A DNA stretch of 64,000 nt. It comes from Dehalococcoidia bacterium. Lineage in GTDB: Bacteria > Chloroflexota > Dehalococcoidia > Bin125. This document shows positions 7,341 through 63,236 of the stretch, piece by piece. The position numbers were made by a program, and so were the translations under genes. The notes under the pieces were generated by a model that did not search any database, had not been told where the DNA came from, and saw nothing but the letters and a program-made list of their open reading frames with translations. The number at the start of each line of letters is the position of its first letter. Position 1 is the first letter of the stretch. The DNA is taken from contig JAJDWB010000018.1 in NCBI GenBank assembly GCA_022825855.1, positions 1-64,000 of the forward strand, read 5' to 3'.

Positions 7341-9215
7341 TTGACCGCACTGACTGCCGACGTCGAACCTCGCCGGGGCCTGCGGGTCCCCGTATCGATC
7401 ATGGTCATCGGTCGCGTGCTGCGCTTCGCGCTGCCCTACTGGAAGGGCCTGTCGGTCACCGCGATCGCGATCCTGGCGACGGCGGCGTTCGCGATTGCGA
7501 CGCCGTGGCTGCTGCGCTGGGCGATTGACACCGCGATTTCGACGGAGATCGTCAACGGCGACACGGTGATCGCGATCACCGGCTGGCTGGTCGCGGTGGC
7601 GGGTCTGGCGCTGGTCGGCGCGGCGGTGCTGCGCGGCACCTCGATGTTCGTCCAGCGCTACCTGGCCGAGTGGGTCGGGCAGACGGTGGCCTACGACCTG
7701 CGCAACGCGATCTACCAGCGACTGCAGACGCTCTCGTTCCGCTTTCACGACGGCGCGGAGACGGGCCAGATCATGGTCCGCGCGACGCAGGACGTGGAAG
7801 TGGTGCGGATGTTCATCAACTTCGGCGGCGTCCAGCTCTCGTTCACGCTGGTGCTGGGGGTCGGCACGCTGGTGATCATGCTGCTGATCAACTGGCCGCT
7901 GGCCTTGATGGTCTGGGGAATCATGATCCTGATCGCCGCGCGCTCGGCCTTTGTGGCGCGGCGGCTGCGGCCGATCTGGAACGACGTGCAGGAGTCGCAG
8001 GCGCAACTGGGCACGGTGCTGCAGGAGGCGCTGTCGGGGATTCGCGTGGTCAAGGCGTTCGGGCGGGCGGAGTTCGAGGGTCAGAAGTTCGGCCGCGCGG
8101 CGGGTTGGTTGCAGCAGCGGTCCTACGACGCCTCGATGGTGCAGGCGGTCAACATGCCGCTGATGACGATGCTCGGCGCGGCGGCGATCGTGCTGACGAT
8201 CTGGTACGGCGGTCGCGAGGTGGTGAACGGCAACTTCACGGTCGGTGAACTGACCATGTTCCTGATGTTCCTGACCATCCTGCAGATGCCGATTCGCGGT
8301 CTGGGCTGGATGGTGATGATGGTCCCGCGCGCGGCCACGGCGGGGATGCGGATCTTCGAGATCCTCGACCAGGAATCGGAAGTGCAGGACAACCCCGAGG
8401 CGGTCGCCCCGGAGCGTCCCCAGGGTCACATCAAGTTCGAGGGCGTCAGCTTCGCCTACGATCCGCGCTCGCCGGTGCTGGGCAACATCGACTTCGAGGC
8501 CAGGCCGGGCGAGCTGATCGCGCTGTTGGGCCTGACCGGCAGCGGCAAGACCACGGTGGTCAACCTGATCCCGCGCTTCTACGACGTGAGCACCGGGCGG
8601 GTGACCTTCGACGACCAGGACGTGCGCGACTGGCCGCTGGAGGCGCTGCGCCGGCAGGTGGCGATCGTGCAGCAGGAGGTCTTCCTGTTTGCGGCGACGC
8701 TGAAGGAGAACATCGCCTACGGGCGGCCCGACGCGACGGACGAGGAGATCGAAGCGGCGGCCAAGCTGGCCCGGATTCACAACTTCATCAACCGGCTGCC
8801 GGAGCAGTACGACACCTGGGTCGGCGAGCGCGGAGCGAACTTCTCGGGCGGACAGAAGCAGCGGATCGCGATTGCGCGGGCGTTGCTGATGGATCCGCGC
8901 GTGTTGATCTTCGACGACTCGACCTCGTCGGTGGACGCGGCGACCGAGTTCGAGATTCAGCAGGCGATGGCAGCGCTGATGCGCGGCCGGACGACGTTCG
9001 TGATTGCTCACCGGCTGCGTTCGCTGCGCGAGGCCGACCAGATCCTGGTCCTGGACCAGGGCCGGATCGTGCAGCGCGGCAAGCACGACGAGCTGCTGGA
9101 GCAGGGCGGGCTGTACCGCGAGATCTACGAGTTGGAGCTGCGCGATCAGGAATCGGCCGGCGCTCACGAGGCCGAGCCGGCCGAAGCGGTCGCGGCAGCG
9201 GGCGGGAGCGGCTAG
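7341..9215 (+). CDS. ABC exporter half-transporter with degenerate ATP site (subunit 1)
   Basis: This 624-aa type IV ABC half-exporter has a six-helix membrane domain (about 20-330) fused to an ATPase domain. Walker A is GLTGSGKT (397-404) and the signature is FSGGQ (501-505). Walker B reads LIFDDSTSSVD, so the catalytic Glu is Asp, as in the degenerate subunit of heterodimeric exporters such as TM287/288. It is immediately followed by its partner at 9216. The start is a TTG with a GGGAGC site upstream; a downstream GTG or ATG remains possible. The substrate cannot be read from sequence; lipids, drugs or peptides are all possible for this class. Confidence 0.92.
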   Translation: MTALTADVEPRRGLRVPVSIMVIGRVLRFALPYWKGLSVTAIAILATAAFAIATPWLLRWAIDTAISTEIVNGDTVIAITGWLVAVAGLALVGAAVLRGTSMFVQRYLAEWVGQTVAYDLRNAIYQRLQTLSFRFHDGAETGQIMVRATQDVEVVRMFINFGGVQLSFTLVLGVGTLVIMLLINWPLALMVWGIMILIAARSAFVARRLRPIWNDVQESQAQLGTVLQEALSGIRVVKAFGRAEFEGQKFGRAAGWLQQRSYDASMVQAVNMPLMTMLGAAAIVLTIWYGGREVVNGNFTVGELTMFLMFLTILQMPIRGLGWMVMMVPRAATAGMRIFEILDQESEVQDNPEAVAPERPQGHIKFEGVSFAYDPRSPVLGNIDFEARPGELIALLGLTGSGKTTVVNLIPRFYDVSTGRVTFDDQDVRDWPLEALRRQVAIVQQEVFLFAATLKENIAYGRPDATDEEIEAAAKLARIHNFINRLPEQYDTWVGERGANFSGGQKQRIAIARALLMDPRVLIFDDSTSSVDAATEFEIQQAMAALMRGRTTFVIAHRLRSLREADQILVLDQGRIVQRGKHDELLEQGGLYREIYELELRDQESAGAHEAEPAEAVAAAGGSG

Positions 9216-11228
9216 ATGGGCATGATGGGCGGCGGCATGGCCGGAGGCTGGACCTCCAACCTGGGCGGCGGCGGACACGGTCCGCGCAGTTCCTGGGCGT
9301 CGTCGGCGTCGATGGCCGACGGCTGGGACAAGGAATACGGCTCGCTCTACAACCCGCGGCTCGTGCGACGCTTCGGCCGCTACATCGGCCCGCACAAGAA
9401 GCGCCTGGGCGCGGCAATTCTCGCCAATATCTTCTTTGCTGTCTCCTACAACATTCAGTTCTTCGTCGTCTATGAAGCGCTCAAGGGTGCATTGGAAGAC
9501 GGCGTTCTGTCGAACCTGGACGGAATCGCTATCGCATTCGGTGTGATCGTGCTGGTTGCGTGGGGGACAGAGTTCTTGCGTCAATGGTTGATGGCCAATG
9601 TGGGCCATCCGATCCTGAGACGGATGCGCCAGGAGGTCTTCGATCACCTGATGAAGTTGGAGCATCGCTTCTACGACCGCGGCGAAGTCGGGGCGATCAT
9701 GTCTCGCGTCACCTCCGACGTGCAGGTGTTGCAGGAAATGTTGACCTCGGGTGTGCTCACCGTGATTGGCGACATCTTCGGTCTCGTGATCGTCATGGGC
9801 TTCATGATCGCGATCGATTGGCAGTTGGCTCTGGTCTCGTTTGCCGTGCTGCCAATCCTGATCATCTCGATGGCCTGGTGGAGCAAGCGCGCGCGGATGG
9901 CGTTCCTCGAGACGCGCGTGGCGATTGCGGCGGTGAACTCGACCTTGAACGAAGACCTGAACGGCGTCCGCGTGGTGCAGAGCCTGAACCGCGAGTCGGA
10001 GAACGCCAAGCGCTTCGACCGGATCAACAACTGGAACCTGCGCGCGACGCGCCGGGCGGGCCTGCTCTCGGCGGCGATCATGCCGCTGGTGGAGATCCTG
10101 ATCGCCCTGGCGACGGCGCTGATCATCGTGGTCGCGGCGGTGCGCCTGAGTGGCGGCGGACTGGAAGAGGCGGCCGGTGTAGCGGCGATCATCGCCTTTG
10201 CCATCGGCATCCAGCGCTTCTTCGACCCGGTCCGCGACCTGGTCTTGCAGTACACGATGTTCCAGCGCGCGATGGCCGGAGCGGAGCGGGTCTTCGAAGT
10301 GCTCGACACCGAGCCCGAGATCGAAGACTCGCCGGACGCGGAGGATCTGCCGGACATCGCAGGGCATGTGCACTTCGACAACGTCTCGCTGGAATATGTG
10401 GACGGCGTGCGGGTGCTGTTCGACCTCGATCTGGAAGTGCAGCCGGGCGAGACGGTCGCGCTGGTCGGGGAGACCGGCGCGGGCAAGACGTCGATCACCT
10501 CGCTGATCACGCGCAACTACGAAGTGACCGAGGGCGCGGTGCGGATCGACGGGCACGACGTGCGCGAGGTCACACGGGCGTCGCTGGTGCAGCGCGTCGG
10601 CGTGGTCCTGCAGGATCCGTTCCTGTTCTCGGGCACGGTGCTGGACAACATCATGTACGGCAACCTCGGGGCGACGCGCGAGCAGGCGATTGACGCGGCG
10701 CGGGTAGTCGGCGCCGACGAGTGGATCGAGCGGCTGCCGCAGAGCTACGACACGCCGCTGGCGGAGCGGGCGCAGAACCTGTCGATCGGGCAGCGACAAC
10801 TGGTCGCCTTCGCCCGGGCGATCCTGAGCGATCCGCGCATACTGATCCTGGACGAGGCGACGGCGAACGTGGACTCGCAGACCGAGGCGCTGATCCAGCA
10901 GGCGATCGCGCGCGTGCTGCGCGGCCGGACGGCGTTCGTGATCGCGCACCGGCTGTCGACGATTCGCTCGGTCGACCGGATCATCGTGCTGGAGTACGGG
11001 CGGATCATGGAGCAGGGCACGCACGAGGAGCTGCTCCAGGTCGACGGCTACTACGCGAAGCTCTACCGGATGATGTATGCGGCGCAGGAGTCGGTGGAGT
11101 TCGACGAGGAGGCGGCGCTGGCGGTGCTCGACCGGATGCGGGAGCGGACGAGCGCGAGCGGCCGCAACGGGACGAACGGGACGGGATCGCGGTCGGATTC
11201 CAGCGAGCCGTCGCTGACGTTGGATTAG
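9216..11228 (+). CDS. ABC exporter half-transporter (subunit 2)
   Basis: This 670-aa partner subunit starts directly after the stop of subunit 1, so the two are co-translated. A Gly-rich N-terminal tail (about 35 residues) precedes the six-helix membrane domain. Walker A is GETGAGKT (418-425), and Walker B LILDEATANVD keeps the catalytic Glu. The signature is LSIGQ (522-526) rather than LSGGQ, as often seen in the subunit whose signature faces the degenerate site. Thus the pair should have one active site (this subunit's Walker motifs with subunit 1's FSGGQ) and one impaired site. The Ser/Thr/Asn-rich tail after residue 630 is poorly conserved. Confidence 0.93.
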   Translation: MGMMGGGMAGGWTSNLGGGGHGPRSSWASSASMADGWDKEYGSLYNPRLVRRFGRYIGPHKKRLGAAILANIFFAVSYNIQFFVVYEALKGALEDGVLSNLDGIAIAFGVIVLVAWGTEFLRQWLMANVGHPILRRMRQEVFDHLMKLEHRFYDRGEVGAIMSRVTSDVQVLQEMLTSGVLTVIGDIFGLVIVMGFMIAIDWQLALVSFAVLPILIISMAWWSKRARMAFLETRVAIAAVNSTLNEDLNGVRVVQSLNRESENAKRFDRINNWNLRATRRAGLLSAAIMPLVEILIALATALIIVVAAVRLSGGGLEEAAGVAAIIAFAIGIQRFFDPVRDLVLQYTMFQRAMAGAERVFEVLDTEPEIEDSPDAEDLPDIAGHVHFDNVSLEYVDGVRVLFDLDLEVQPGETVALVGETGAGKTSITSLITRNYEVTEGAVRIDGHDVREVTRASLVQRVGVVLQDPFLFSGTVLDNIMYGNLGATREQAIDAARVVGADEWIERLPQSYDTPLAERAQNLSIGQRQLVAFARAILSDPRILILDEATANVDSQTEALIQQAIARVLRGRTAFVIAHRLSTIRSVDRIIVLEYGRIMEQGTHEELLQVDGYYAKLYRMMYAAQESVEFDEEAALAVLDRMRERTSASGRNGTNGTGSRSDSSEPSLTLD

Positions 11229-16841: not shown

Positions 16842-19001
16842 GTGTCCGGCAGCATGATCACGAGGCGAGCGATTGAGCGGCCGCAGCCGTCCAGAGCGCG
16901 GCTGGGCAGGCTCGCGCTGGTCTGCGCGGTCGGCCTGGTCTGCCTGGCGGCGCTGGGAGCGGCGCCGGATTGGTTCAGCGGGCAAGAGCGGGCATCGGCT
17001 CAGTCGTCCACAGCGATGGTGCGCGAGGGCGAGATCGGCGATGCGCAGGACGCGGACTGGTACCCGCTGTTCGCGCTGGCCGAGCAGACCTTCTCGCTGA
17101 CGTTGCAGCGGCTGACGCTGCCGGCGGCGGAGCTGACGATCTGGAAGCCGGCCCACGACGGTGAGCCGGCGCAACTGGCGGCGCGCTGGACCAGCGAGGG
17201 GGTCCCGCTGATCTGGACGGCCCCGGAGAGCGGGGCCTGGCGGGCTCGAGTGGTCGGGCTGAATGGCGCCGTCGGCCGGTACCGGCTGACGATCCAGCCG
17301 CACGCAGACGCGATCGGCGCCAACCTGGCGACGGCGCGGCTGTCCTCGTTCGCTGGCGACGGCACGCTGATCGAGCGGTCGGCCATCGACGCTCCGGGCG
17401 ATGTCGACTGGTTCGCGATCCCGATGGCGGCCGGCAATCGTTACCTGGTCTGGTCGCTAACCGGATCGGTGTCGGCGATCTCGGCGGCGATTCGGGAGCC
17501 GGCAGCGGAGTCGTTACGCGATCTGGGAACCAAGGCAGAGGCGTTCAGCGACGTGGTCGAAGTCGGGGAGAGCGGTCTGGCGGTGCTCGCGATCAGGGGC
17601 CGGGAGACCTGGATGCAGGGCAGCTACGCCTTCGGCGTCACGCGCTGGGGATCGGAGCCGGAGCCGGTCGTCCGTCTTCCTGCCGACGACGCGTCGGAGT
17701 TGCAGATCGAATCGATCGCAGCCTGGTCGACAAGCGGCGGTGCGGAGTTCGGATTCCAGGGGAGCTGGGGACCGATCCGGACGAACAGCGGGCTGCGGGT
17801 CTGGATCGACACCGATCCCGGCGTTGGCGACGAGCAGGAGTGGGAGTACCTGCTGCGATCCAACGACGGGCGGCGGATGTCGGTCTGGTCCTTCGCCGAG
17901 GGCCGCTGGATCTCGAGCGCCCACGTGGCGGCTCGCGGGTTCGACACGCTCGTGCTGGCGTGGCAGGGCCGCACCGCAAACGAGCAGATTCGCTGGCAGG
18001 CCAGCCTCAAGAACTCGGACGATCGGTGGACGCTCTCCCGGCCGAGGGTCCTGCACGTGCCTCACCCGCCGCCGGCGCTGCCGGAACCCTGGTTCCAGCG
18101 CGAACGCACCGGCTCCGAGGATCCGCGCTGGCAGCGCGAGCTCAGGGCCGCCGGCGTGGTGGCCGACCTCGACGACGACGCGATCGTGGTGGCGCTTGAC
18201 GCCGGACACGGCGTGGAGTCCGGCGCCTGGGACCACGGTGTGCGCGAGGCCGACTCGAACCTGGCCTTTGCCCTGCGGATCGAGGAGATCCTGGAAGCGC
18301 GCGGCGTCACGGTCGTGCAGACGCGGCGGTCCGGCGGCCGGCCCTATCTGAATCTGGACCGCGCCTTCTGGCGTCCCGATTACCAGGCTCGGGCGGAACT
18401 CGCGCACCTGGCCAGGGCGGACGTCTTCGTCTCGATTCACTCGAACGCCAACTACCTCTTCCCGATCAACGGCCTCGAGGCGTGGTACATGCCCCGCTGG
18501 AACGGGGACGGAGCCAACCTGCGGCTCTCGGAGACGCTCCTGGCGAGCGTGGAGGAAGCGCTGGCCGAGTACGGATACCGGACGACCAGCCTGACCTATG
18601 ACGCGTCCTGCTGGGAAGTGGTCAACGGCGCCTGCGATCCGATCTACGTGCTGGCGCCGTTCCTGCAGATCGACGCCGATGCGGCGCGGCGCTGGGGCAT
18701 CGACCCGGCCGAGCTGGGCCTGTCGCTGGACCCCTACGGCGCGGCCGAGAACGACTGGCTCTGGCGCAACGACATCACGGTCGGCGAGCCGCCGATCGAC
18801 CTGATCCAGCGCGAGACGCAGATCGGGCCGGGCAAGATCGTGCGCGGCAACCTGATGCCGACGACGCTGCTGGAGCTGTTGTACGTCTCCCACGAGCGCG
18901 ACGCCCGCATCCTGCGCGATCCCGCCGCTCGCGAGGTGATCGCTCAGGCGGTCGCCGCGGGCATTCTGGAGTTCCTGGGCGTCGGCGGGCAGTCCGAGTG
19001 A
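16842..19001 (+). CDS. Secreted multidomain N-acetylmuramoyl-L-alanine amidase (Amidase_3)
   Basis: This 719-aa protein cleaves the bond between muramic acid and the stem peptide. A signal peptide or membrane anchor covers about residues 23-50. Two beta-sandwich domains resembling PPC-type modules follow (about 57-150 and 160-270), then a third beta-rich domain resembling DOMON (about 280-400). The zinc amidase domain has H456 in DAGHG, E469, H533 in SIHSN, and the catalytic E678. All four are present, so it should be active. The catalytic domain has a long insertion (about 545-660) relative to AmiC-type enzymes. The GTG start is uncertain; an ATG lies at 16854. Confidence 0.85.
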   Translation: MSGSMITRRAIERPQPSRARLGRLALVCAVGLVCLAALGAAPDWFSGQERASAQSSTAMVREGEIGDAQDADWYPLFALAEQTFSLTLQRLTLPAAELTIWKPAHDGEPAQLAARWTSEGVPLIWTAPESGAWRARVVGLNGAVGRYRLTIQPHADAIGANLATARLSSFAGDGTLIERSAIDAPGDVDWFAIPMAAGNRYLVWSLTGSVSAISAAIREPAAESLRDLGTKAEAFSDVVEVGESGLAVLAIRGRETWMQGSYAFGVTRWGSEPEPVVRLPADDASELQIESIAAWSTSGGAEFGFQGSWGPIRTNSGLRVWIDTDPGVGDEQEWEYLLRSNDGRRMSVWSFAEGRWISSAHVAARGFDTLVLAWQGRTANEQIRWQASLKNSDDRWTLSRPRVLHVPHPPPALPEPWFQRERTGSEDPRWQRELRAAGVVADLDDDAIVVALDAGHGVESGAWDHGVREADSNLAFALRIEEILEARGVTVVQTRRSGGRPYLNLDRAFWRPDYQARAELAHLARADVFVSIHSNANYLFPINGLEAWYMPRWNGDGANLRLSETLLASVEEALAEYGYRTTSLTYDASCWEVVNGACDPIYVLAPFLQIDADAARRWGIDPAELGLSLDPYGAAENDWLWRNDITVGEPPIDLIQRETQIGPGKIVRGNLMPTTLLELLYVSHERDARILRDPAAREVIAQAVAAGILEFLGVGGQSE

Positions 19002-19203: not shown

Positions 19204-19686
19204 ATGGTCGATGCACAAGTCGTGAGCCGGGAACGGACCGCCGTCGAAACGGAAGTCGACCGCCAGGGCGTGTTCCCCTACCTGATCTACAAGCACGCGC
19301 CCGAGGCGATCGACTGGCTCGGCCGCGCGTTCGGGTTCACTCCCGACGAGGTCCTGTCGATCCCCGACGGCCGGGTCGCCCACGCCGCGCTTTCGCTGGA
19401 CGGCCAGGTCGTGATGCTCTCGTCCAGGCTGGAGCGGTACGTCAACCGAGCCGCCAAGCCGGGCGCGTACTCGATCTCGCGGATTCACGTCCGGGTCGAC
19501 AATGTCGACGCGCACTACGAACGCGCGGTGTCCGAAGGAGCCGGGATCATCTTGCCGCTCGACGACCAGTTCTGGGGTCTGCGCGAGTATCACGCGCTGG
19601 ACCTGGAGGGCCACTGGTGGAGCTTCTTCGAGCGGATCCGGTCGGTGCCCCAGGAGGAAGTCCGGAAAGAGTTGCTCAGGTGGTGA
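19204..19686 (+). CDS. VOC/glyoxalase superfamily protein, array copy 1
   Basis: This 160-aa protein has the paired beta-alpha-beta fold of the vicinal oxygen chelate superfamily, PhnB-like subtype: FPYLIYKHAPEAIDWLGRAF near the N-terminus and a closing DLEGHWWSFFE. Members include glyoxalases, dioxygenases and antibiotic-binding proteins; which one applies here is not evident. It is the first of five tandem paralogs and has an extra N-terminal 17 residues. The other four share the DQF(W/Y) and D(L/P)EG..W motifs. It is separated from copy 2 by 94 bp, a larger gap than among the others. Confidence 0.85.
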   Translation: MVDAQVVSRERTAVETEVDRQGVFPYLIYKHAPEAIDWLGRAFGFTPDEVLSIPDGRVAHAALSLDGQVVMLSSRLERYVNRAAKPGAYSISRIHVRVDNVDAHYERAVSEGAGIILPLDDQFWGLREYHALDLEGHWWSFFERIRSVPQEEVRKELLRW

Positions 19687-19780
19687 GGGCATATCCCGGA
19701 CCGCTTGCCTATTCGAACATATATGCGCTACCGTAGACGGCGATCGCGCGATCCGAGGACTCGAGGATGAGGGGCACGCG

Positions 19781-20245
19781 ATGGCGGACTACGGGGAGTT
19801 GGGTCATCAGCGCATCGTGCCGGCGCTCACCTATGCCGATGCGCCGGCGGCGATTGAATGGCTCTGCCGCGTGTTCGGGTTCGAGGAGATTCGGAGGATG
19901 GAGGTCGGCGACGGCCGCATCGGCAATGCCGCGCTCAGCTTCAACGGCGAGCAGATCATGCTCGCCTCGCCGTTCGACGAGGCGGGCACGAAGTCGCCCC
20001 GCGAATTGCCCGCGCTGCATCAACAGATCACGGTCTACGTGGACGATGTCGACGCGCACTTCGCCCGTGCGCAGGCCGAGGGCGCCGAGATCCTGGCCGA
20101 GCCGGCGGACCAGTTCTGGGGCGCGCGCAACTACTGGGTCCAGGACCTCGAGGGTCATCGTTGGACCTTCCAGCAGCAGCTCAGGCAGGTACCGGATCAC
20201 GAGTCGGCGGCCGAGATGCTGAAGATCGCAAGCGACGAAGGCTGA
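19781..20245 (+). CDS. VOC/glyoxalase superfamily protein, array copy 2
   Basis: This 154-aa single-domain VOC paralog contains RIVPALTYADAPAAIEWLCR near its start, VDDVDAHFARA in the middle and DLEGHRWTFQQ at the end. It aligns with its neighbours over the full length. The start is the ATG at 19781 with GAGGGG-like bases upstream; earlier in-frame codons would overlap copy 1. The stop is 2 nt before the start of copy 3, so copies 2-5 are probably one transcript. Confidence 0.85.
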   Translation: MADYGELGHQRIVPALTYADAPAAIEWLCRVFGFEEIRRMEVGDGRIGNAALSFNGEQIMLASPFDEAGTKSPRELPALHQQITVYVDDVDAHFARAQAEGAEILAEPADQFWGARNYWVQDLEGHRWTFQQQLRQVPDHESAAEMLKIASDEG

Positions 20246-20247
20246 CG

Positions 20248-20670
20248 ATGGCGGAATCGCAGCGAGTCTTCCCCTACCTGGCCTACGAGGACGCCGATGC
20301 AGCAATCGAGTGGTTGTGCCGCGTGTTCGGATTCGAGCGGGTGGACGTGCAGACGATTCCCGACGGGCGGGTGGTCCACGCGGCGCTGTCGCTCGACGGC
20401 GCGCAGGTGATGCTGGCCTCGCTGTTCGAGGGCGGCGGGTACTGCTCGGCGAACGCGCTGGACGAGTTGCCCAGCCATGTGCTGATCCATGTCGATGATG
20501 TCGATGCGCACTTCCATCGGGCCGAGGCGGCGGGCGCGGCGATACGCTATGGACCAGTCGACCAGCCCTGGGGCGCTCGATTGTATGAAGCCACCGACCC
20601 GGAAGGTCATCGCTGGGCCTTCATGCAGCCGCAGGACGACGCCGGCGCCCAGGCAGAAGCGAATGAGTGA
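20248..20670 (+). CDS. VOC/glyoxalase superfamily protein, array copy 3
   Basis: This 140-aa VOC paralog begins 2 nt after copy 2 and contains VFPYLAYEDADAAIEWLCRV, VDDVDAHFHRA and DPEGHRWAFMQ. It differs in having DQPWGARLYEATDPEG where copies 4 and 5 have DQFYGDRTYRAVDPEG, i.e. a Tyr-Glu in place of the Arg-Ala segment, which may shift ligand or metal binding. Its ligand is unknown. Confidence 0.85.
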   Translation: MAESQRVFPYLAYEDADAAIEWLCRVFGFERVDVQTIPDGRVVHAALSLDGAQVMLASLFEGGGYCSANALDELPSHVLIHVDDVDAHFHRAEAAGAAIRYGPVDQPWGARLYEATDPEGHRWAFMQPQDDAGAQAEANE

Positions 20671-20682
20671 GAGGAAGCGATC

Positions 20683-21144
20683 ATGGTCCAGAACCCACCG
20701 GAGGGCAGCCAACGCATCCTGCCCTACCTGAACTACGCCGACGCGCCGGCCGTGATCGAGTTTCTCAAGACCGCCTTCGGCTTCGAGCAGGGGCTGCTGC
20801 TGGAGATGCCCGACGGGAGCGTCGGACACTGCGAGCTGCAGATGAACGGCGAGACGCTGATGCTCGCCAGCGCCTTCCCCGAGATCGGCCTGAGCAGCCC
20901 GCAGGCGCTCGGCGGCGTCCACGCGCAGGTGGTCGTCTACGTGGATGACCTCGACGCCCATTGCGAACGGGCGCGCGAGGCCGGCGCCGAGATTACCCAG
21001 GAGCCCGCCGACCAGTTCTACGGCGACCGTACCTACCGTGCGGTCGATCCGGAGGGCGTCGGCTGGGACTTCCACCAGCACGTCCGCGACGTGACGCCGG
21101 AAGAAATGGCCGCAGCGATGGCCGACATGGATTCAAGGGAGTAA
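20683..21144 (+). CDS. VOC/glyoxalase superfamily protein, array copy 4
   Basis: This 153-aa VOC paralog follows copy 3 by 12 nt and contains ILPYLNYADAPAVIEFLKTA, VDDLDAHCERA and the DQFYGDRTYRAVDPEG stretch. Copies 4 and 5 are the most alike pair in the array and share this exact 16-residue segment, so they look like the most recent duplication. It is closest to PhnB-like glyoxalases (often annotated as bleomycin-resistance-like). Confidence 0.85.
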   Translation: MVQNPPEGSQRILPYLNYADAPAVIEFLKTAFGFEQGLLLEMPDGSVGHCELQMNGETLMLASAFPEIGLSSPQALGGVHAQVVVYVDDLDAHCERAREAGAEITQEPADQFYGDRTYRAVDPEGVGWDFHQHVRDVTPEEMAAAMADMDSRE

Positions 21145-21148
21145 CACA

Positions 21149-21610
21149 ATGGCGGACCAACCTGACCTGAGCGCCGGGCGACGACAGCGAATCGTGCCGG
21201 CGCTGTCCTACGACGACGCGCCGGCAATCATCGAGTTCCTCTGCCGCGCGTTTGGATTCGAAGAGCGCTTCAGGCTCGACATGCCCGACGGCAGCATCGG
21301 CCACGCCTCGCTGGTTTACGGCGGCGAAGAGGTGACGCTGGCCACGGCCTATCCGGAGGGCGGACTCGGCGGTCCCGGCCGTCTGCCGCACCTGCACGCG
21401 AGCGTGATGGTCTACGTCGACGACGTCGACGCGCATCACGCCCAGGCCGCGGCCGAAGGCGCGACGATCCTGCAGGAGCCCGAGGACCAGTTCTACGGCG
21501 ACCGCACCTACCGCGCCGTCGATCCCGAGGGCGGCAACTGGTGGTTCCACCAGGAGGTAACGGTCGTCAGCAGCGAGGAAGCGCAGGCTGCGATCGACGC
21601 GATGGAGTGA
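21149..21610 (+). CDS. VOC/glyoxalase superfamily protein, array copy 5
   Basis: This 153-aa VOC paralog starts 4 nt after the stop of copy 4. It contains RIVPALSYDDAPAIIEFLCR, VDDVDAHHAQA and DQFYGDRTYRAVDPEG. The C-terminal helix ends SSEEAQAAIDAME, similar to copy 4's TPEEMAAAMADMD, which supports their recent common origin. It converges on the PPOX gene at 21614 with a 3-bp gap and no obvious terminator. Confidence 0.85.
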   Translation: MADQPDLSAGRRQRIVPALSYDDAPAIIEFLCRAFGFEERFRLDMPDGSIGHASLVYGGEEVTLATAYPEGGLGGPGRLPHLHASVMVYVDDVDAHHAQAAAEGATILQEPEDQFYGDRTYRAVDPEGGNWWFHQEVTVVSSEEAQAAIDAME

Positions 21611-21613
21611 GCC

Positions 21614-22438
21614 TCAGCCGACCCGGTGCGTGGTCTCCACGCGGATCGCGACGCTGTTCATCTCGCTCACGTCCATCGGGAACTCGTCCAGCTTCCAGTA
21701 GAGCCGGGTCAGCTCGTTGGCCATCTGACGCCCGTCGATCGGCGTGATCTCCGCGCGTCCGCGCAGTTCCGTGTAGCGGTAGGGGTCAGCCTCGTCGTGA
21801 ATGCTGACCGCGATTGCGGGGTTGTTGCGCAGGTGCCGGGTCTTGAGCGTCTCGGCCGAAGTCCAGAACTCGATGTCGTGCTCGCCGCCGCCCTCGGGCC
21901 GGCGATGCCAGACGACCGACGAGCGCGGCTGACCGGTCGAGCTGACCGTGGCGACGTGGGCGAAGTGCGGCGGCATCAGCAGGTCGGAGCCGGCGGCGGG
22001 CGTCTCGACCGAGGGCGGCTGCTCGCCGCCGTTGGGCAACGTCACGCGGTCGATCTCGACGGTCACGTGCCAGCCGGCCGGGTCGTCGCCCTTGAACGGG
22101 TAGTCGCGGCCCATGTACTGGTTGGAGATCGCGTCCAGCTCGTCCCAAGATGAGCGCGGTTCGAACGATGCGGTGCCGACGATCTCGAGCATCCGATACG
22201 GATCCTCGGCGCCGTGGATCGAAAGCGCCACGCGCGGCTCGCGCTGCATGTTCAGCGACTTGCGGTAGCGCAGTCCGGTGACGAAGAAGATCGACTCGAC
22301 CGCGCCATCGGCCGAGATTCGCTCCGGCCGGATCCAGATCGGCGAGGACTGGGGCGAGCCGTCGCGGTTGACCGTGACGAGGTGAGCAAAGTTGGGGGCG
22401 CCGACCAGGTCGGCGTGTTCGGCGGGGACGGAGGCCAT
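21614..22438 (-). CDS. PPOX-type split-barrel protein, two fused domains (possibly F420- or FMN-dependent)
   Basis: This 274-aa protein is a tandem fusion of two split-barrel domains of the pyridoxamine-phosphate-oxidase-like family. Domain 1 (about 1-140) contains FAHLVTVNRDGSPQSSPIWI, and domain 2 (about 155-274) contains FAHVATVSSTGQPRSSVVWH. The second half is an internal duplicate of the first. Such proteins bind FMN or F420 and often reduce small molecules; a substrate cannot be named. A single-domain relative is at 61930. A strong hairpin (22470-22495) separates it from the upstream ThDP enzyme, so it likely has its own promoter. Confidence 0.85.
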   Translation of the reverse strand: MASVPAEHADLVGAPNFAHLVTVNRDGSPQSSPIWIRPERISADGAVESIFFVTGLRYRKSLNMQREPRVALSIHGAEDPYRMLEIVGTASFEPRSSWDELDAISNQYMGRDYPFKGDDPAGWHVTVEIDRVTLPNGGEQPPSVETPAAGSDLLMPPHFAHVATVSSTGQPRSSVVWHRRPEGGGEHDIEFWTSAETLKTRHLRNNPAIAVSIHDEADPYRYTELRGRAEITPIDGRQMANELTRLYWKLDEFPMDVSEMNSVAIRVETTHRVG

Positions 22439-62413: not shown

Positions 62414-62821
62414 CTACTCCGTTTGCGTCGCGAGCGGGTCGTAGGTGCCGAAGTGCCAGAAGTTGCCCTCGGGGTCGCGGACCGTGAACGCGTGCGAACC
62501 GTAGTCGGTGTCTTCGAGCGGGAATGCGACGGGGGCGCCCGCACTCCGGGCTCGTTGGTACAGCTCGTCGACCTGTTCGTTCGACTCTGCGGCCAAGCTG
62601 ACGGATGCCTTGCCGATTGACTCGTTGAGCGGGTCATCCTCGCCGCGGGCTGATCCGAGCATGACCAGGCTGCCGCGCCACTCCAACTCGGCGTGCGCGA
62701 CGCCGCCGTTGCCGTCGGGCACGATCATGCGCTCGGTGAAGTCGAACGTGCGACAGAGCCACTCGATGAGCGTCTGAGCGTCGTTGGCGCGGAATGCGGG
62801 AACGATTGTCTGGTGTGGCAT
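62414..62821 (-). CDS. VOC/glyoxalase superfamily protein
   Basis: This 135-aa VOC protein starts MPHQTIVPAFRANDAQTLIE and ends DPEGNFWHFGTYDPLATQ. It is a close paralog of the gene just upstream (62835) and a distant relative of the five-gene array at 19204-21610. It contains VMLGSARGEDDPLNES in place of the array's longer loop. Ligand unknown. Two VOC genes and a PPOX gene form this leftward cluster. Confidence 0.85.
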   Translation of the reverse strand: MPHQTIVPAFRANDAQTLIEWLCRTFDFTERMIVPDGNGGVAHAELEWRGSLVMLGSARGEDDPLNESIGKASVSLAAESNEQVDELYQRARSAGAPVAFPLEDTDYGSHAFTVRDPEGNFWHFGTYDPLATQTE

Positions 62822-62834
62822 GGCTTCATCTGTC

Positions 62835-63236
62835 CTATTGTTCCTGGGTCGCGAGCGGGTCGTAAGTGCCCAGGTGCCAGTGATTGCCCTCGTAGTCGGC
62901 GACCGTGAAGGCGTGCGAGCCGTAGTCGGTGTCGGTGAGCGGCTGGATCACCTTCGCGCCGGCGGCGACGGCCCGTTCGAAGACCTGATCGACCTGCTCG
63001 GCCGACTCGGCGGTCATGCTGATCGATCCGTGGTTCTGGGGCAGATTGTGGACGTCGTCGGAGGCGTCGCCGAGCATAACGATCGAGCCGCGCCAGGCGA
63101 GTTGGGCGTGCTCGACGCGGCCCTCTTCGTTGCGGACGACGAAGTGCTCGGTGATGCCAAACGCGTCGTTGAGCCACTGGATGGCCTGGTTGGCGTCTTC
63201 GTAGCGGAGGGTTGGGACGACGGTCTGGTGGGGCAT
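62835..63236 (-). CDS. VOC/glyoxalase superfamily protein
   Basis: This 133-aa VOC protein starts MPHQTVVPTLRYEDANQAIQ and ends HWHLGTYDPLATQ, sharing most motifs with its downstream paralog. The start at 63236 is preferred over a TTG at 63248 because GGAG lies 6 nt upstream and because the sibling starts with the same MPHQT. It is first in the VOC-VOC-PPOX cluster. Confidence 0.83.
   Translation of the reverse strand: MPHQTVVPTLRYEDANQAIQWLNDAFGITEHFVVRNEEGRVEHAQLAWRGSIVMLGDASDDVHNLPQNHGSISMTAESAEQVDQVFERAVAAGAKVIQPLTDTDYGSHAFTVADYEGNHWHLGTYDPLATQEQ

What the first reader, a model, noticed from the sequence alone, without database searches (positions are those of the whole stretch)
19204..21610. 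Tandem array of five VOC/glyoxalase paralogs
Five single-domain VOC genes lie in a row on one strand, and copies 2-5 are separated by 2, 12 and 4 nt. Copies 4 and 5 share DQFYGDRTYRAVDPEG and look most recent. Copy 3 has a changed segment at the same place. VOC proteins dimerise, so heteromeric assemblies with mixed active sites are possible. Two more VOC genes at 62414-63236 make seven in 64 kb.
Basis: partly seen in the sequence, partly recalled or inferred. Interest (0 to 1): 0.6.

Follow-up and report, generated by a model that had tools for sequence, protein, structure and literature searches.

The report
Conserved row of diversified drug-binding-like genes
Related bacteria, at least one of them a known marine-sponge symbiont, keep three to seven neighbouring copies of one small protein gene in a fixed order; each copy has its own lining in the binding pocket and none has the metal site of a glyoxalase enzyme, so they look more like a set of small-molecule-binding (possibly toxin-soaking) proteins than like recent duplicates of one enzyme.

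Summary
In detail: five single-domain VOC (PF00903) genes lie in a row at 19204-21610 (+), and two more at 62414-63236 (-). Much of the reading attached to it is wrong or untested. The array is not a recent local duplication. The same locus, with the same flanking genes, holds 3-7 copies in 13 further Dehalococcoidia genomes. Copies fall into ortholog classes, and the classes always occur in one order (c1-c2-c3-e-c4-c5-c5'-c6, with drop-outs). Copies 4 and 5 are only 57-60% identical, while orthologs reach 95%, so DQFYGDRTYRAVDPEG is an old family motif. No copy has the metal ligands of glyoxalase I. The closest solved relative is TioX, a thiocoraline-binding protein (E 4.6e-31). Cavity-facing strand positions are as conserved within classes as other strand positions, but differ far more between classes (permutation p 0.0003-0.003). 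Best explanation: an old, selected set of metal-free, ligand-binding VOC proteins with different specificities, probably sequestering or carrying toxic small molecules in a sponge habitat. Ligands and heteromeric assembly are untested. New variant of a known kind; moderate interest.

The parts
19204..19686 (+). c1: VOC paralog, most diverged array copy; pocket signature R85/H122/S132 (c5 numbering)
   Evidence: ORF and Pfam; orthologs in 8 other genomes; dN/dS 0.30-0.60, the least constrained copy
19781..20245 (+). c2: VOC paralog, core copy, pocket Q85/W122/T132
   Evidence: present in all 13 loci of the genus; dN/dS about 0.08-0.19
20248..20670 (+). c3: VOC paralog, pocket H85/E122/A132; its 'changed segment' DQPWGARLYEA is conserved in c3 orthologs
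20683..21144 (+). c4: VOC paralog, pocket E54/R122/D132
   Evidence: dN/dS about 0.07-0.22
21149..21610 (+). c5: VOC paralog, pocket S54/T63/S85/W132; AlphaFold2 model pLDDT 92.4
21614..22438 (-). Conserved downstream neighbour: F420-dependent PPOX-class oxidoreductase (TIGR03618, two domains), convergent with the array, itself duplicated in eight relatives
16842..19001 (+). Upstream neighbour in most but not all relatives: N-acetylmuramoyl-L-alanine amidase (PF01520)
62414..62821 (-). d1: VOC paralog of a separate conserved pair (H132)
62835..63236 (-). d2: VOC paralog, partner of d1 (57% identical to it)

Best explanation
The array is an old, vertically inherited set of single-domain, metal-free VOC proteins related to the antibiotic-binding protein TioX. 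Shown: tandem duplications made up to eight classes, most of them before this genus diversified; each class was then kept under purifying selection while its binding cavity diverged from its neighbours'. Inferred: each copy binds a different small molecule, or a different member of a family of molecules, and acts by sequestering it or handing it to export or oxidoreduction, which protects a symbiont that lives among cytotoxic compounds; c2-c5, with gaps of 2-12 nt, are probably co-transcribed. Not known: the ligands, and whether the proteins form homodimers or mixed dimers.
For: Closest solved relative by profile is TioX, 3ITW, E 4.6e-31; the next is at 5e-9. TioX is also Foldseek's top hit (E 4.7e-11) and ties for first in VIA (Z 15.2, rmsd 2.4, 117 residues), though VIA puts BlmB at 15.2 and glyoxalase I at 14.3, so fold alone does not discriminate. 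TioX captures thiocoraline (PMC4052310). Glyoxalase I ligands H5, E56, H74 and E122 fall on V16, T63, S85 and W132 of c5; position 16 is hydrophobic and 63 is M/T/L/F in nearly every member. Classes are supported groups, collinear and syntenic; ortholog dN/dS is mostly 0.07-0.2. Cavity-facing positions: identity within classes 0.83 against 0.85 outward-facing; between classes 0.29 against 0.52; p 0.00065, stable when any class is left out (p 0.0003-0.0017) and for c1-c5 alone (p 0.0027). The one near-invariant cavity residue in the array is D113, so a shared catalytic set is not apparent. Two gammaproteobacterial bins carry one e-type copy directly before a MATE efflux gene. Precedent for several VOC sequestration proteins in one locus: TnmS1/S2/S3 (PMC9854587; PMC11069151).
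Against: No ligand is known. The flanking genes (acyl-CoA dehydrogenase, amidase, PPOX, TPP enzyme, ABM) are not a resistance or biosynthesis cluster. Most relatives of this protein family come without any functional assay that I know of, and their neighbours are varied. Metal-free VOC proteins can be enzymes (PluN2, 6p29, is in the fold list; that it works without metal is my recollection). The cavity assignment rests on strand register, not on coordinates. TioX's tetramer-forming cysteines (recalled, not read here) are not evident in the array copies.
Confidence: 0.5

Rival explanations
1. The copies are metal-independent VOC enzymes (isomerases, lyases or cyclases), each acting on a different substrate, for example in breaking down recalcitrant organic matter.
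For: Enzyme families are expanded in related SAR202 Chloroflexi (PMC6306507; PMC6946804 listed). The array lies beside an F420-dependent oxidoreductase, a TPP enzyme and an acyl-CoA dehydrogenase in its relatives. Metal-free VOC enzymes exist (6p29; recalled). H52 and D113 are conserved cavity-side residues in nearly all classes.
Against: Of the cavity positions only D113 is near-invariant; H52 is lost in most c2 members. The closest characterised relative is described as a binder.
Confidence: 0.27
2. Metal-dependent glyoxalase I, fosfomycin-resistance or extradiol-dioxygenase type enzymes with an active site shared across the dimer.
For: Fold matches GlxI (1f9z, Z 14.3) and FosX/FosA.
Against: All four ligand positions are replaced in every class, and the replacements do not form another metal set in one consistent place.
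Confidence: 0.05
3. Heteromeric assemblies: neighbouring paralogs pair into mixed dimers whose shared cavity gives new specificities. This can be true together with the best explanation.
For: VOC proteins usually dimerise (general knowledge); fixed gene order and short gaps allow balanced co-expression.
Against: No direct evidence. Copies drop out freely from the array (3 to 7 copies, several combinations), which argues against obligate partners, except perhaps c2, which every array of the genus keeps.
Confidence: 0.15
4. Gene dosage or drift: near-neutral tandem copies with one redundant function.
For: Copy number varies from 3 to 7; c1 has relaxed constraint (dN/dS 0.30-0.60).
Against: Classes are old, orthologous, under purifying selection, and differ at fixed cavity positions.
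Confidence: 0.05

Closest known systems
TioX (Micromonospora sp. ML1, thiocoraline cluster; PDB 3ITW)
   Same: Single-domain VOC fold, 30-43% identity to the array copies over about 125 residues, best profile and Foldseek hit, no glyoxalase metal set in the aligned sequence
   Different: Single gene in an antibiotic biosynthesis cluster; here 3-7 diversified copies in a chromosomal locus with no NRPS or PKS among the window genes scanned
TnmS1/TnmS2/TnmS3 (tiancimycin sequestration proteins)
   Same: Several VOC-fold binding proteins encoded in one gene cluster; fold matches Z 13.3-13.8
   Different: Much lower sequence similarity (18-19%); they belong to an enediyne producer's cluster; three, not up to seven, copies
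Bleomycin- and mitomycin-binding proteins (Tn5 Ble, BlmA, MRD)
   Same: VOC-fold drug binding; fold matches (1ecs, 1ewj, 1kll)
   Different: Distant sequence (19-24%); single copies
Glyoxalase I / GloA2
   Same: Fold (1f9z Z 14.3, 4mts Z 14.5)
   Different: Metal ligands absent in all array classes

Membership tests
VOC / PF00903 fold superfamily | Profile match and paired beta-alpha-beta-beta-beta fold | tested here: met
   PF00903 48.8-60.3 bits, cut-off 20.6; c5 model pLDDT 92.4 with VOC matches up to Z 15.2
Metal-dependent glyoxalase I | Four metal ligands (H5, E56, H74, E122 in E. coli) | tested here: not met
   Positions 16, 63, 85, 132 are V, T, S, W in c5 and not a metal set in any class
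TioX-like binding proteins | Closer sequence relation to TioX than to other solved VOC proteins | tested here: met
   E 4.6e-31 against 5.1e-9 for the next; fold Z tied with others
TioX-like binding proteins | Binding of thiocoraline or its quinoline chromophore | not testable with these tools
   Needs purified protein
TioX-like binding proteins | Disulfide-linked tetramer | tested here: inconclusive
   Cysteines in c1-c5 at none / 32 / 32,74 / 53,97 / 32 in c5 numbering; TioX cysteine positions recalled, not read here
Antibiotic sequestration proteins of TnmS type | Encoded in an antibiotic biosynthesis gene cluster | tested here: inconclusive
   No NRPS or PKS domain in the 20 window genes scanned with Pfam, but not every window gene was scanned
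Antibiotic sequestration proteins of TnmS type | Confers resistance by binding | not testable with these tools
   Needs an expression assay

The most novel reading that the evidence does not exclude
A Chloroflexota lineage found in sponges keeps a modular row of non-catalytic binding proteins with a different pocket in each position, gained and lost as units, serving as a small panel of sinks for the different cytotoxic natural products of its habitat, possibly widened by mixed dimers.
Probability: 0.25. Interest if true: 0.65.

Novelty: new variant of a known kind. Interest (0 to 1): 0.42.

Why it matters
If the copies are binders, the array is a natural series of pockets on one scaffold with clear orthologs in 14 genomes, which makes it possible to ask which compounds a sponge symbiont must withstand and how VOC binding specificity changes. 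It also warns against annotating such genes as glyoxalases.

Tried and rejected
Recent duplication of c4/c5: rejected by tree and ortholog identity. Local gene conversion over the shared 16-residue motif: no clear support, since synonymous differences remain (pS 0.38 for c4-c5, while c2-c5 gives 0.36). Assembly artefact: rejected. Metal enzyme: rejected on ligand positions. Conserved link of VOC with PPOX in the planctomycete L015: guessed from gene length, rejected (the neighbour is a metallo-beta-lactamase-fold protein). Remnants of lost copies in long gaps: none found. Promoter and terminator scan: nothing. Viral contigs: no relative. Plasmids: only relatives under 60% identity. Papers describing such arrays in sponge Chloroflexi: none found in the held library. 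The VIA Z scores do not separate TioX from other VOC folds.

Full report
What is there. Five PF00903 genes occupy 19204-21610 on the + strand with gaps of 94, 2, 12 and 4 nt, and two more lie at 62414-63236 on the - strand. The genome has 22 PF00903 matches in 2.8 Mb, but only these seven match a profile of the five at E <= 1e-12.

Where it comes from. The nearest relatives are Dehalococcoidia (Chloroflexota) metagenome bins. One of them, bin125 (L010/L093), is from the sponge Aplysina aerophoba (PMC5649159). The names of several other bins suggest sponge surveys, but this was not checked record by record, so the sponge habitat of the window's own organism is an inference.

The array is old, ordered and variable. 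Of 15 genomes of the genus searched (the window's included), 13 have an array of three to seven copies, one has only fragments at contig ends (G008) and one has none (G007); a genome of another genus in the family, G017, has four copies. Among 245 genomes drawn from the class, arrays of this size were seen only in these two genera. The flanks are the same wherever the contig reaches: acyl-CoA dehydrogenase, often an amidase, the array, one or two PPOX genes, a TPP enzyme and an ABM protein. In a tree of 143 proteins c1, c2, c3, c4, c5, c6 and e form supported groups, with c1 and c3 closest to c2. Some placements are looser: G013's c2-type copy sits at the base of the c1/c3 branch rather than within c2, G013's c4 at the base of c4, and c5' is a grade at the base of c5. 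Written by class the gene order never changes: c1-c2-c3-e-c4-c5-c5'-c6 with drop-outs. Lost copies left no detectable remnant in the longest gaps.

Selection. Against the window's copy, most orthologs of c2-c5 give dN/dS of 0.07-0.22 (one c3 pair 0.30); c1 is looser at 0.30-0.60. Synonymous divergence between paralogs is high (dS 0.7-1.5), which fits old duplications; codon bias makes these dS values rough.

Not glyoxalase-like in its metal site. Profile alignment with E. coli glyoxalase I (sequence confirmed as 1F9Z) puts H5, E56, H74 and E122 on V16, T63, S85 and W132 of c5. Across the classes position 16 is non-polar or aromatic (F, V, L, I, A, M, Y), 63 is M, T, L, F or rarely S, 85 is R, H, Q, S, V or similar, and 132 is S, T, A, D, W, E, I or, in d1/d2, H. 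No class has a plausible copy of the four-ligand set.

Closest characterised relative. The five-copy profile finds TioX (3ITW) at E 4.6e-31, far ahead of PhnB-type proteins at 5e-9. The AlphaFold2 model of c5 (pLDDT 92.4) has TioX as best Foldseek hit; in the VIA comparison TioX ties with the VOC domain of bleomycin N-acetyltransferase and lies within 1 of glyoxalase structures, so the fold comparison alone says only 'VOC'. TioX is described as capturing thiocoraline in the manner of bleomycin-binding proteins (PMC4052310; PMC6804068). Several VOC sequestration proteins in one cluster have a precedent in TnmS1/S2/S3 (PMC9854587; PMC11069151).

Diversified pockets. From the model's strands and hairpin register I listed 30 strand positions that should face the cavity and 28 that should face away. 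Within classes the two sets are equally conserved (0.83 and 0.85). Between classes the cavity set is much more different (0.29 against 0.52; loops and helices 0.51); permutation p = 0.00065. Leaving out any class gives p 0.0003-0.0017, and c1-c5 alone give 0.0027. This is the strongest functional signal: each position in the row has its own fixed lining. Two limits: the cavity list was inferred by register, not measured on coordinates, and it was drawn up after I had looked at class-specific residues at a few positions (54, 85, 122, 132), so it was not fully blind.

Mechanism. The best-supported reading is a set of metal-free binding proteins with different ligands. Shown: fold, absence of the metal set, age, order, purifying selection, cavity divergence. 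Inferred: binding rather than catalysis, toxic ligands, co-transcription. Rivals are metal-free enzymes with different substrates, and mixed dimers; neither is excluded. A small circumstantial point for drug handling is that two gammaproteobacterial bins carry one e-type copy directly upstream of a MATE efflux gene.

Other notes. An early notebook entry counts nine genomes with a duplicated PPOX gene; the recount is eight.

Noticed in passing
L013:6001-7923 and L014:6001-7976: Single e-type array VOC gene in two gammaproteobacterial bins, nested inside the Dehalococcoidia e class and followed by a MATE efflux gene; suggests transfer between phyla that share a habitat.
   Followed up: partly
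21614-22438 and relatives (e.g. L088:6792-8475): The two-domain F420-dependent PPOX gene next to the array is present as two tandem copies (about 90% and 64% identical to the window's) in eight relatives.
   Followed up: partly
62414-63236: d1/d2 VOC pair with H at position 132 is conserved as a pair across most of the genus, in several genomes 40-50 kb from the array.
   Followed up: partly
7341-11228: Two adjacent ABC exporter genes (ABC_membrane plus ABC_tran; the second MsbA-like), about 8 kb upstream of the array.
   Followed up: no
L036:3047-3775 and L043:5974-6940: Tandem pairs of related VOC genes also occur in some proteobacterial genomes, one with an apparently broken frame.
   Followed up: no
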